A stretch of 64,000 bases of DNA from Planctomycetota bacterium (GCA_023150475.1 JAKLKU010000007.1:124001-188000), one strand, 5' to 3'; positions 3,167 through 7,960 are shown, counted from the stretch's first letter. Made by a program: numbers and translations. The notes: generated by a model not told the origin, from the letters alone.

Positions 3167-3988
3167 TCAGGCGTCCGCGGACGGCCCGCGCCGCCAGCGC
3201 TGGCGCGAAGCGACGAGCGTGCGCGGCGCGGGCGCCGTCGCGAGGAGCTCGAGCGCTTCCGCGAGCACCGCGTCGTGCAGTTCGCCGTGTCCCGGATCGC
3301 CGAGCGGCGCGCCGAACGGGAAGTGCACGGCGAGCGCGCGCGGCGCGCCGACGAATCGCGTCAGCTCGGGGATCAACGTCACCGCCACCGTCGGCACGCC
3401 GCGCGCCTCGAGCTCGCTCGCGATCAGTGCGACCGTCTGCACGCAGATCGAGCAATTCGGCACGAGCACGACGCCGTCGACACCGTCGGCCGCGAATCCG
3501 TCCGCGAGGCGCTGCGCGTGTTCCAACAACCCTGGCAGCGGACGGATCACGCCGCCGACGAAGCTCGCGTGCCGCGGTGCGACCGCACCGATCAGGCCGC
3601 GCGCGGCGAGCCGCGCGAGCGCGCGCCGCGGGAAGGCGACTTCGGGATCGACAGCCGTGTACTTCGCGTCGACGTACCCGCGTTCGAGCGCGAGCTCGGT
3701 CGCAGGCGTGTCTTGCGCGATCCAGCGGAAGCTCGGATCTCCGAGCGGCTCCTCCAACGCACGGAACGACGCGTCGTCGCGTCGATGGAGGCCCGCGGTG
3801 GTCACGAGCGCGATCCGCGAGCTCGCGAGCGGCTCGTGCAGCGCGCACCAAGGCACCTCGACGCGCCGCACGAACCCGAACTCCGGATCCGCGCCGCCGC
3901 GGATCATGTCGACGAGCTTGCCGAGCAGTTGGTCCTCGAACGGCCCGGTGCCGCGTTCGAACCGGGAACGTTCGCCGACCGAGTTCAT
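3167..3988 (-). CDS. Glycine/sarcosine/betaine (D-proline) reductase component B-like protein with CxxC
   Basis: 273 aa; ALVTTAGLHRR, RGLIGAVAPRHASFVGG and VVLVPNCSICVQTVALIASELEARGVPTVAVTLIPELT resemble the GrdB/PrdB family. Confidence 0.6.
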   Translation of the reverse strand: MNSVGERSRFERGTGPFEDQLLGKLVDMIRGGADPEFGFVRRVEVPWCALHEPLASSRIALVTTAGLHRRDDASFRALEEPLGDPSFRWIAQDTPATELALERGYVDAKYTAVDPEVAFPRRALARLAARGLIGAVAPRHASFVGGVIRPLPGLLEHAQRLADGFAADGVDGVVLVPNCSICVQTVALIASELEARGVPTVAVTLIPELTRFVGAPRALAVHFPFGAPLGDPGHGELHDAVLAEALELLATAPAPRTLVASRQRWRRGPSADA

Positions 3989-3992
3989 GCGC

Positions 3993-4988
3993 TCACGCGC
4001 GCCGCGTGCCGCGCGCGCGGCTCGTCAAATGATCGGCGAGCGCGCTCGAGACGTCGATGCCGGTGAAACGCTCGAACTCGACGAAGAACGGCGAAGAATT
4101 GCACTCGAGCACCGACCACGCGCCGCTGCGTTCGTCGCGCATGAAGTCGACCGCGGCGAACTCCATGCCCCAATGTCGCGCGAGCGTTTCGGCGTCGGTG
4201 CGCGCGCTCGCCGGCGCTTCGACGCGTCGCAGGCGACTGGTCTGCTTGCGCGAGTCGATCTCCGCGCCTTCCGACGCGTGCACTTCCGCCGCGCCGAGAT
4301 AGCGGCCGCCGATCACGTACGCGCGCACGTTCACGCCGACGATCCGCTCTTGCACGAGCGCCGCGCTCCCCGCGAGCTCCGCGCGCGCCGCCGCGACGTC
4401 CGCAGGCGGCGCGAACTCGCGCGTGTAGCCGTAACCGCCGACCAAGCCCTTGCGGATCCAACCGCCGAGCTCGTTGGGCGCCGCCGCCGGCGCGTCTGGC
4501 GCCGTCGCGAGCGCGTTCGGCCGCGCGGCGAGCGCGACGAGCGCTTGCGGATCGGTCGTCGCGCAGGTCGCGGGCGCGAGGATCCCGAGCCGCACGAGCG
4601 TCGCGCTCTCGAACGGCTTCTCGCCGTGCAGGTCCCATGCGCGCGGCGGGTTCGCGACCTTCGCGCGCCGCGCGAGCCGGTGGAAGAGCGCCGTCCAACT
4701 CGCCAGATGGCGTTGCGACGCGCGCAAGGCTCGCACGCTCTGCTCGCGGTCCGTCGAGCCGTCGCTCGCGCGCACGCCGGCGGGCAGCAGCCCGAGGTCG
4801 GCGACGTAGAACGCGCTGAACGTGCGCAGGTCGCGGCCCATCAGCTCTTCGCCGTCGGGTCGCAAACGGATCGCCGGATCGCGGCGCGAGTCGAACACGA
4901 CGCCTTCCGCGCCGCGCTCCTCGAGGCGCACGCACAGCCGCTCGATCTCCGCGCGTTCCGGCGAGCCGATCAGTCCGACCTGTTGCAC
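3993..4988 (-). CDS. ATP-grasp (RimK/GRASP-type) ligase
   Basis: ORF 3993..5036; likely GTG start near 4988 just after the radical SAM stop; VQERIVGVNVRAYVIGGRYLGAAEV ... AVDFMRDERSGAWSVLECNSSPFFVEFE is typical ATP-grasp C-terminal lobe. Confidence 0.75.
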   Translation of the reverse strand: MQQVGLIGSPERAEIERLCVRLEERGAEGVVFDSRRDPAIRLRPDGEELMGRDLRTFSAFYVADLGLLPAGVRASDGSTDREQSVRALRASQRHLASWTALFHRLARRAKVANPPRAWDLHGEKPFESATLVRLGILAPATCATTDPQALVALAARPNALATAPDAPAAAPNELGGWIRKGLVGGYGYTREFAPPADVAAARAELAGSAALVQERIVGVNVRAYVIGGRYLGAAEVHASEGAEIDSRKQTSRLRRVEAPASARTDAETLARHWGMEFAAVDFMRDERSGAWSVLECNSSPFFVEFERFTGIDVSSALADHLTSRARGTRRA

Positions 4989-4995
4989 GACGACC

Positions 4996-6351
4996 TCACT
5001 TGCACGCGACGTCGCGCGCGGGGCCGGTCGTCGCATCCGGGCCGGGGTGGCGGTGCCGGATCTCGAGCAGCGGCTCCAAGTGGAACTTGTAGTGCTCGCA
5101 CGCGCCGCGATCGCGCTCGGGGTGCCGCATCGCTTCGAGCGGACAACCGCCGTGACACAGCGGCATCACGTCGCAGGAGCGACAGCCGCTCTTCGCGAGC
5201 GGATCCCACGCGAGCCACTTGTTCTCGTTCGAGCGCTGCCAGTCCTGTTGCCCGTCGAGCAGGCTGCCGACCGACTTCTCCGGGTTCATCGTCACTTCGT
5301 GCCAGCACTTGAAGAGCAAGCCGTTCGGCGCGACGACCCAACCGTTCGCGCGATCGGCGGTGCAGAACGCACCGGCGAGGCGGAACGGATAACGCGAGAG
5401 CCCGAGGTTGCGCTTCGCGGCCTCGCGATAGAGCTCGACTTCGAGCTTCGCGAAGCCGTCGCTCGAATAACAGAGCTCCTGGATGTTGCCGCACGCCGCG
5501 CCGTCGTGCGTCACCTGCGCGAGGTAGGGCCGCACGCGCTGGAGCCCGTGCTCCTTCAGGATCTCGAGCACTTCGAGCGCCCGCAGCGCGTTGCGCGCGT
5601 CGACGTTGATGCGTAGTTGGAACTCCGCGAGGTCGACGCACGCCTTCAGGTTCTCGACGATGCGCCAGAAGGTCCCGCGGCCGCCGATCAAGTGCCGGCG
5701 CTTGTCGTGTTCGTCCGGCGGACCGTCGAGCGTGACTTGCACGCGCGCGACGCCGAGTTCCTTCAGCCGCGTCATCTTCTCGCGGTCGAGGAAGAAGCCG
5801 TTGGTGACCAGCGTCGCGTCGTAGCGCATGCCGCGCCGCTCGCAGAGCGCTTGGAAGCCGGCGCTCAAGCGCTCGACCACCGGGTACGCGGTCGGGAGCA
5901 GCGGTTCGCCGCCGTACCACGTCACGACGAGCCCTTCGCACGGCTTCGACTTCGCGTCGCACCACGCGAGCAACGCGTCCTGCACGCGCTTCGACATGTG
6001 CACTTTCAAGTGCTCCTCGAAGCAGTAGTCGCAGCGGAAGTTGCAGTCGAGGGTCGGCGCGATCGTCAGGAACAGGTGGTCGACGCGATGCCGGTCGCGT
6101 TCGAGGTCGGCTTTCGCCGTCGCGAGCTCGTCTTCGTCGTCTTCGATCAGGAAGTGCGCGCGCAGCAGCGCTTCGCGGATGTCGCGTTTCTCCGCCGTGT
6201 CGCACGGCGTCGAGTTCGGCGCGGCGAGCAAGCCTTCGACGAACGGCTTCTGCGCCGGTTCGATCTCCGCGAGCGCCGTCGACCACGAATTGAAAGCGAG
6301 CCACGTTCCGTCGGAAGCCTGGAAGAGCCGGTTGTAACGAGAGGGCTTCAT
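4996..6351 (-). CDS. Radical SAM/SPASM peptide-maturase-like protein
   Basis: MKPSRYNRLFQ start at 6351; CNFRCDYC (CxxxCxxC), TWYGGEPLL, C-terminal SPASM-type cysteines FKCW...CRSCDVMPLCHGGCP...RGACEHY. Confidence 0.9.
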   Translation of the reverse strand: MKPSRYNRLFQASDGTWLAFNSWSTALAEIEPAQKPFVEGLLAAPNSTPCDTAEKRDIREALLRAHFLIEDDEDELATAKADLERDRHRVDHLFLTIAPTLDCNFRCDYCFEEHLKVHMSKRVQDALLAWCDAKSKPCEGLVVTWYGGEPLLPTAYPVVERLSAGFQALCERRGMRYDATLVTNGFFLDREKMTRLKELGVARVQVTLDGPPDEHDKRRHLIGGRGTFWRIVENLKACVDLAEFQLRINVDARNALRALEVLEILKEHGLQRVRPYLAQVTHDGAACGNIQELCYSSDGFAKLEVELYREAAKRNLGLSRYPFRLAGAFCTADRANGWVVAPNGLLFKCWHEVTMNPEKSVGSLLDGQQDWQRSNENKWLAWDPLAKSGCRSCDVMPLCHGGCPLEAMRHPERDRGACEHYKFHLEPLLEIRHRHPGPDATTGPARDVACK

Positions 6352-7472: not shown

Positions 7473-7577
7473 ATGAAGTTCGTCGTCAAGCCGACCGATC
7501 CGCAGAAGGGCCCGCCGATCCACACGATGTGCGTGCTGTGCTCGGAAGACCCGAAATGGTGCCCGCCGACGGAGTGA
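7473..7577 (+). CDS. Putative RiPP precursor peptide 1, MKFVVKPTDPQKGPPIHTMCVLCSEDPKWCPPTE
   Basis: 34 aa; AAGGAG ribosome-binding site upstream; paralogue of the 7859 peptide; next to radical SAM/SPASM and ATP-grasp genes. Confidence 0.8.
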   Translation: MKFVVKPTDPQKGPPIHTMCVLCSEDPKWCPPTE

Positions 7578-7637
7578 TGCCGTCACGGCGCGCACATGCG
7601 CCCGACCGGCGGCTCTCGGAGCCGCGCGGTCGCTGAA

Positions 7638-7673
7638 CGAGAGCGTCCGCTGCAGCCTGCGCGGGCGCTCTCG
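7638..7673 (+). terminator. Hairpin downstream of precursor 1
   Basis: CGAGAGCGTCCGC / GCGGGCGCTCTCG, 13-bp stem with one G-T pair, 10-nt loop. Confidence 0.5.
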
Positions 7674-7858
7674 CTGTTCCACGAGCGCCGTTTTCCACTC
7701 GGCGGGAATCGCCGGCGCATGCGACTCGCCGCACCGCCGTCGTGCCTCGACGGACTCCGACCGCCCGCCTAGAGTTGCGACGTCTCACCGCGACTCGTGA
7801 GTCTCTCCGCGTCCGGTGAGCCGTCGTCATTCGAACCCCTCGTCAAACGGAGGCTTCC

Positions 7859-7960
7859 ATGAAGTTCATCGTCAAGCCGCTCGATCCGCAGAAGTTCCCG
7901 ATCACGACGCACTGCGTGCTCTGCTCCGAAGACCCGAAGTGGTGCCCGCCGACCGAGTGA
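7859..7960 (+). CDS. Putative RiPP precursor peptide 2, MKFIVKPLDPQKFPITTHCVLCSEDPKWCPPTE
   Basis: 33 aa, not in the supplied ORF track; CGGAGG ribosome-binding site upstream; last 15 residues identical to peptide 1 with only synonymous differences. Confidence 0.8.
   Translation: MKFIVKPLDPQKFPITTHCVLCSEDPKWCPPTE

What the first reader, a model, noticed from the sequence alone, without database searches (positions are those of the whole stretch)
3167..7960. Candidate undescribed RiPP system: twin Cys-rich mini-peptides with radical SAM/SPASM, ATP-grasp, ATP-grasp-like and GrdB-like enzymes
Seen: two tiny paralogous peptide genes on + (7473, 7859), and a tightly packed divergent - operon (7286 to 3167) encoding a degenerate ATP-grasp-like protein, a radical SAM protein with SPASM-type C-terminal cysteines, an ATP-grasp ligase and a GrdB-like protein. 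Known: radical SAM/SPASM enzymes and ATP-grasp ligases both modify ribosomal peptides, and 'grasp-with-spasm' systems are described from Bacteroidetes. Inference: the precursors here lack a Gly-Gly leader and end in an invariant CxxCxxxxxxCPPTE, and a GrdB-like reductase is an unusual partner, so this may be a separate class combining radical thioether/C-C chemistry with ATP-grasp ester or amide links.
Basis: partly seen in the sequence, partly recalled or inferred. Interest (0 to 1): 0.95.

Follow-up and report, generated by a model that had tools for sequence, protein, structure and literature searches.

The report
Peptide-crosslinking cassette combining two chemistries
A small gene cassette, conserved in at least three bacterial phyla, makes tiny cysteine-rich peptides and appears to staple them with two different kinds of enzyme (radical and ATP-driven), helped by a dead copy of the ATP enzyme and by a redox-type protein for which I found no earlier report in such pathways.

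Summary
Two 33-34 aa peptides face a tight operon: pseudo-ATP-grasp, radical SAM/SPASM, active ATP-grasp, PrdB-like protein. The same set recurs in a second cluster of this genome, in all sampled same-genus genomes, and in other Planctomycetota, Acidobacteriota and Krumholzibacteria. All 30 peptides found near clusters by their leader share M[KR]F[IV]V and T-x-C-x-x-C-x-E-x-P-x-x-C; "CPPTE" is local. Elsewhere in the order the motif is at chance level. SPASM protein and leader are Clo7bot-like. The active ATP-grasp resembles PsnB, the plesiocin graspetide ligase, and keeps its catalytic residues; its paralogue has lost them. The "GrdB-like" protein is a PrdB relative whose CxxC replaces the Sec-x-x-Cys of PrdB selenoproteins. 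Most clusters add a peptidase-less HlyD/ABC exporter; the window's does not. Best model: a RiPP with radical-made Cys thioether(s) and one Thr-Glu (i,i+7) ester, made by the PsnB-like enzyme with its dead paralogue as partner; the PrdB-like protein handles thiols. All linkages are inferred. ATP-grasp plus SPASM RiPPs are already known, so this is a new variant, not a new kind, unless the PrdB-like protein makes a new linkage.

The parts
7473..7577 (+). Precursor peptide 1 (34 aa). Invariant family positions: T18, C20, C23, E25, P27, C30
   Evidence: Leader- and motif-conserved in 17 clusters; SD AAGGAG 7461-7466
7859..7960 (+). Precursor peptide 2 (33 aa). Invariant family positions: T17, C19, C22, E24, P26, C29
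   Evidence: As for precursor 1; SD GGAGG 7849-7853; weak TIGR04333 Clo7bot peptide match E 0.029
6348..7286 (-). GRASP2: pseudo-ATP-grasp, paralogue of GRASP1 without catalytic residues
   Evidence: hhalign to GRASP1 family 97.3%; catalytic K, R, D and E-x-N lost in aligned copies; predicted ATP-grasp fold, pLDDT 84, best PDB matches AMdnB, PruB, MdnC, PsnB
4996..6351 (-). Radical SAM/SPASM peptide maturase (CX3CX2C plus full SPASM cysteine set)
   Evidence: TIGR04463 302 bits and Clo7bot TIGR04334 272 bits, both below cut-off; TIGR04085 SPASM domain above cut-off; cysteines invariant
3993..4994 (-). GRASP1: PsnB-like ATP-grasp ligase (GTG start at 4994 likely; ORF open from an ATG at 5036)
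   Evidence: Profile match to PsnB (7drm) E 3.8e-47 over full length (identity of 7drm as PsnB); catalytic residues invariant
3167..3988 (-). PrdB-like protein, Cys-type (C179-x-x-C182)
   Evidence: TIGR04483 E 6e-30, 104 of 300 bits; first Cys aligns with Sec of PrdB selenoproteins

Best explanation
It is a RiPP biosynthesis cassette, a graspetide/Clo7bot-type hybrid. SHOWN by comparison: the precursors share an M[KR]F[IV]V leader start and an invariant T-x-C-x-x-C-x-E-x-P-x-x-C core. They sit beside a pseudo-ATP-grasp, a SPASM maturase and a PsnB-like ATP-grasp, nearly always with a Cys-type PrdB-like protein and usually with a HlyD/ABC exporter. INFERRED: the maturase recognises the Clo7bot-like leader and joins one or more of the three cysteines to carbon as thioether(s). 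The active ATP-grasp phosphorylates the side chain of the invariant Glu and joins it to the invariant Thr seven residues upstream as an omega-ester. The dead ATP-grasp is an obligate partner that binds the leader or stabilises the ligase. The PrdB-like CxxC protein keeps or resolves the cysteine thiols. The product leaves through the HlyD/ABC exporter and is trimmed by an unidentified protease. The window's cluster has no exporter of its own and may share that of the genome's second cluster.
For: Conserved cassette in 17 clusters from three phyla. 30 of 32 leader-type small ORFs carry the full motif without selection for it; the other two are remote and unrelated. Motif DNA 16 times in 4 cassette genomes versus 2 in 57 others. 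GRASP1 matches PsnB with E 3.8e-47 and keeps the catalytic residues. The only invariant donor/acceptor pair in the core is Thr/Glu, i to i+7. Maturase and leader are Clo7bot-like. ATP-grasp-linked maturases form one clade, support 0.97. GRASP2 is a homologous fold without the active site. PrdB-like CxxC is in register with Sec-x-x-Cys. HlyD/ABC exporter follows the peptides in most clusters. Partner-dependent graspetide synthetases have precedent (PMC13097080).
Against: No linkage has been observed. The precursors lack the Phhx(1,2)h and GG motifs typical of graspetide leaders (PMC8939145). One cassette-like locus, L107, shows no PrdB-like gene and no recognisable precursor in 12 kb. No exporter and no protease in the window's own cluster. 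The Glu could instead be a thioether acceptor. Matches to Clo7bot models are below curated cut-offs.
Confidence: 0.5

Rival explanations
1. RiPP cassette, but different linkages: the invariant Glu (or the neighbouring Asp/Asn) is the radical-SAM thioether acceptor, and the ATP-grasp joins a free amino acid or other amine to a carboxylate, or makes a Cys-Glu thioester or another ring.
For: Maturases related to PapB (104 bits) join Cys to acidic residues (established for PapB; from memory). ATP-grasp enzymes of the RimK/MptN type add single amino acids and also match GRASP1. Graspetide synthetases can form other linkages, including non-native thioesters (PMC13097080).
Against: GRASP1 is much closer to PsnB (E 3.8e-47) than to RimK-type ligases (about 1e-11 to 1e-12). 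The Thr two residues before the first Cys is invariant without another obvious role.
Confidence: 0.3
2. Not a natural product but a peptide-derived redox or metal cofactor: the modified CxxC...C peptide works inside the producing cell with the PrdB-like protein as its partner enzyme.
For: The window-type clusters have no exporter. The PrdB-like protein is kept in nearly all clusters. Peptide-derived cofactors made by radical SAM enzymes exist (PQQ, mycofactocin; established knowledge).
Against: Most clusters carry a dedicated HlyD/ABC pair next to the peptides. One to five precursor copies with variable tails look like a diversified product rather than a cofactor.
Confidence: 0.12
3. The peptides are unmodified small metal-binding proteins that merely neighbour the operon.
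For: CxxC...C spacing resembles metal knuckles (sequence).
Against: Clo7bot-like leader beside a Clo7bot-like maturase. Invariant Thr, Glu and Pro are not needed for a metal knuckle. Always next to this operon in loci from three phyla and not elsewhere in the four cassette genomes.
Confidence: 0.05

Closest known systems
Clo7bot system (TIGR04334 maturase, TIGR04333 peptide) and TIGR04463 radical SAM/SPASM RiPP maturases
   Same: Full-length homology of the maturase; peptides about 35 aa starting MK[FY][IV]V.P with several Cys (L115 passes the Clo7bot cut-off with 618 bits)
   Different: Scores far below both cut-offs; precursors have an invariant TxCxxCxExPxxC core; two ATP-grasp-type proteins and a PrdB-like protein are added, absent from the Clo7bot-type loci examined
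Graspetides, in particular plesiocin and its ligase PsnB
   Same: GRASP1 is full-length homologous to PsnB with catalytic residues kept; invariant Thr and Glu suit an omega-ester
   Different: No repeated core and no GG or Phhx(1,2)h leader motif; one possible ring instead of nested rings; radical SAM maturase and dead ligase paralogue added
Grasp-with-spasm systems of Bacteroidetes (TIGR04193 SPASM; branch 5 of PMC8939145; probably group 14 of PMC13097080)
   Same: ATP-grasp plus SPASM enzyme acting on Cys-containing precursors with conserved Thr/Ser and Asp/Glu
   Different: Neither enzyme matches the grasp-with-spasm models among those listed; no GG leader, LPL or cluster 23 protein; other phyla; pseudo-ATP-grasp and PrdB-like proteins
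PrdB subunit of D-proline reductase / PrdB selenoprotein family (UxxC)
   Same: Homologous over about 210 residues; CxxC in the exact register of Sec-x-x-Cys
   Different: Cys for Sec; sits in a RiPP operon; well below the PrdB cut-off (104 of 300 bits); no pyruvoyl subunit PrdA seen in the cluster
Partner-dependent graspetide synthetases (rosaritide MirB/MirC, PMC13097080)
   Same: A second protein beside the ligase, proposed as a required partner
   Different: MirC is a PpiC-type peptidylprolyl isomerase relative; here the candidate partner is a dead paralogue of the ligase itself

Membership tests
RiPP biosynthetic cluster (general) | Short genetically encoded precursor conserved beside modifying enzymes | tested here: met
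RiPP biosynthetic cluster (general) | Post-translational modification of the precursor | not testable with these tools
   Needs co-expression and mass spectrometry
Clo7bot (TIGR04334/TIGR04333) | Maturase reaches the TIGR04334 cut-off (600 bits) | tested here: not met
   272 bits
Clo7bot (TIGR04334/TIGR04333) | Peptide reaches the TIGR04333 cut-off (31 bits) | tested here: not met
   14.2 bits in the window, 17.4 best in a relative
SPASM-domain radical SAM maturase | CX3CX2C and SPASM cysteine pattern, TIGR04085 above cut-off | tested here: met
   54.5 bits versus 27; cysteines invariant
Graspetide | PsnB/MdnC-type ATP-grasp ligase with intact active site beside the precursor | tested here: met
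Graspetide | Conserved Thr/Ser/Lys donor and Asp/Glu acceptor in the core | tested here: met
   Thr and Glu invariant in 29 distinct peptides; unselected count 30 of 32
Graspetide | Macrolactone or macrolactam in the product | not testable with these tools
   Needs chemistry
Grasp-with-spasm (Bacteroidetes) | Matches the grasp-with-spasm ATP-grasp model or TIGR04193 SPASM model | tested here: not met
   No grasp-with-spasm model among the 6 families listed for GRASP1 at E <= 0.1 or among the best 25 of 64 for the SPASM protein; a weak TIGR04193 match below rank 25 is not excluded
Grasp-with-spasm (Bacteroidetes) | GG-type leader | tested here: not met
   No GG leader in 29 of the distinct peptides as a common feature
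PrdB (D-proline reductase) | TIGR04483 cut-off (300 bits) and Sec-x-x-Cys | tested here: not met
   104 bits, Cys-x-x-Cys. It is a homologue, not shown to be a D-proline reductase
Ranthipeptide/sactipeptide | Cys thioether to a carbon of another residue | not testable with these tools
   Needs mass spectrometry and NMR

The most novel reading that the evidence does not exclude
A new RiPP class in which one short core carries both radical-SAM thioether(s) and a Thr-Glu ester, made by an ATP-grasp/pseudo-ATP-grasp heteromer, with a Cys-type PrdB-like protein carrying out a third, previously unknown peptide modification at a Cys, the Glu or the invariant Pro.
Probability: 0.2. Interest if true: 0.85.

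Novelty: new variant of a known kind. Interest (0 to 1): 0.62.

Why it matters
It would join two RiPP chemistries, radical thioethers and ATP-grasp esters, on one short peptide. It offers a natural case of a catalytically dead ligase paralogue kept as a partner. It also gives a testable setting for the PrdB/UxxC protein family, which is abundant in marine metagenomes (PMC1088965, PMC2398784) and whose role outside proline fermentation is, to my knowledge, unknown. The precise motif makes further members easy to find.

Tried and rejected
Grasp-with-spasm membership rejected (no matching models listed, no GG leader). GrdB identity rejected in favour of PrdB-like. 'CPPTE is invariant' rejected. 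Chance ORFs rejected. A first DNA pattern was one base short and by accident served as a negative control. The PrdB-like profile matched no PDB sequence and its confident model (pLDDT 92) matched no solved fold. Paper searches for Clo7bot, for grasp-with-spasm as a term, and for ATP-grasp plus radical SAM plus RiPP plus glycine reductase returned none. A related maturase locus, L110 (40%), was checked for ATP-grasp genes and has none.

Full report
OBSERVATION. The two peptide ORFs and the four-gene minus-strand operon are present as described. Neighbouring genes overlap by 4 nt or lie a few bases apart (GRASP2/SPASM ATGA overlap at 6348-6351; GRASP1 GTG at 4994; PrdB-like ATG at 3988). Both peptides have Shine-Dalgarno-like sites.

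COMPARATIVE EVIDENCE. The SPASM protein has a 67% identical paralogue in the same genome. That second cluster (L010) carries the same four enzymes and three peptides. The three other same-genus genomes also hold the cassette; none of the other 57 genomes drawn from the family and order has a SPASM match at E <= 1e-40. An even draw of 401 genomes of the phylum adds one cassette (G346, L179) and one more distant SPASM gene without the partner genes (L180), so the cassette is rare. Scans of genome and metagenome collections with an alignment of relatives gave cassettes in Planctomycetota, Acidobacteriota and Krumholzibacteria and on unnamed contigs. The order pseudo-ATP-grasp, SPASM, ATP-grasp is constant where the contig is long enough. 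Peptides lie on the opposite strand, either before the operon or between the ATP-grasp and PrdB-like genes. A HlyD-like protein and an ABC exporter without a detected peptidase domain follow the peptides in most clusters but not in the window-type clusters (window, L016, L018).

PRECURSORS. A leader-based scan that did not require the motif found 32 small ORFs; 30 carry T-x-C-x-x-C-x-E-x-P-x-x-C, and the other two are distant and unrelated. Among 29 distinct peptides other positions vary: the Ser after the second Cys becomes G, R or P, and the residue after Glu is D, N or Y (that table was selected on the motif, so the unbiased count is the one). Synonymous codon changes occur at motif positions. 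The motif as DNA occurs 16 times in the four cassette-bearing genomes and twice in 57 others; a frame-shifted version gives 0 and 2. Leaders resemble Clo7bot peptides weakly (best E 0.003).

ENZYMES. SPASM protein: best models TIGR04463 (302 of 525 bits) and Clo7bot TIGR04334 (272 of 600), with complete cysteine sets. In a tree of 149 relatives the 28 loci with a detected ATP-grasp gene fall in one clade of 30 with support 0.97, which includes the 39% identical L025; the two others in the clade (L097, L108) are contigs that end before the place of that gene. Active ATP-grasp: profile against PsnB E 3.8e-47; K, R, D and E-x-N kept. Pseudo-ATP-grasp: homologous to the active one (hhalign 97.3%); predicted ATP-grasp fold with pLDDT 84 and best PDB matches among macrocyclases and RimK-type ligases; none of the active-site residues conserved in the active family is conserved in it. 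PrdB-like: TIGR04483 E 6e-30. Five genomes of the family and order carry distant PrdB homologues with an in-frame TGA; in the four aligned, Sec-P-x-Cys falls on Cys-S/P-x-Cys of the cassette protein. Its confident model matches no solved structure.

MECHANISM. The only invariant ester donor and acceptor in the core are Thr and Glu, seven residues apart, and the ligase is PsnB-like, so a single Thr-Glu omega-ester is the simplest reading. The Clo7bot-like maturase and three invariant cysteines point to one or more thioethers. The dead paralogue kept beside the ligase suggests an obligate partner; partner-dependent graspetide synthetases were reported in 2026 (PMC13097080). The PrdB-like CxxC protein most simply manages the thiols. 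These steps are inferred; nothing here shows a linkage. A spacing of seven also occurs in the outer ring of plesiocin, but that is from memory and was not checked.

WHAT IS KNOWN. Graspetide clusters with SPASM enzymes are established (PMC8939145, branch 5, Bacteroidetes; PMC13097080, group 14). Searches of the held papers found no system combining a Clo7bot-like maturase, an ATP-grasp pair and a PrdB-like protein. Most subscription papers and all preprints are outside that library, and the supplementary tables of the two graspetide surveys could not be read, so this is not proof of absence. I therefore rate it a new variant of a known kind.

LIMITS. L107 shows no PrdB-like gene and no recognisable precursor within 12 kb. 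In L092 the motif peptide has no standard leader in frame. Several metagenome contigs end inside the operon. Taxon names come from record titles of metagenome-assembled genomes.

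Noticed in passing
L175, L176, L177, L178: Genomes of the same family and order carry PrdB-family genes with an in-frame TGA in a UPxC motif, apparent selenoproteins; their context was not examined. Useful relatives for working out what PrdB-like proteins do.
   Followed up: partly
L040:5945-11302: Desulfobacterales contig with four tandem SPASM maturase genes of this superfamily, 33-34% identical to the window's.
   Followed up: no
L022:12377-13689: Acidobacteriota cluster with five precursors in a row between the ATP-grasp and PrdB-like genes; four of them have an extra Cys in the leader part.
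   Followed up: no
L115:6694-9005: A Clo7bot maturase above the TIGR04334 cut-off with five MK[FY]-type Cys-rich peptides around it: a clean reference locus for the parent system.
   Followed up: partly
L025:208-2814: Divergent version on a bacterial MAG contig (SPASM 39% identical): SPASM followed by an ATP-grasp, with what looks like the end of a second ATP-grasp-like gene upstream; no precursor or PrdB-like gene seen on the 4.6 kb contig.
   Followed up: partly
window 8141-9791: An enoyl-CoA hydratase and an arylamine N-acetyltransferase family gene flank the cassette; similar regions flank it in the same-genus loci L016 and L018 but not in the other clusters, so the window-type cassette seems to sit at one fixed place without an exporter.
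   Followed up: partly
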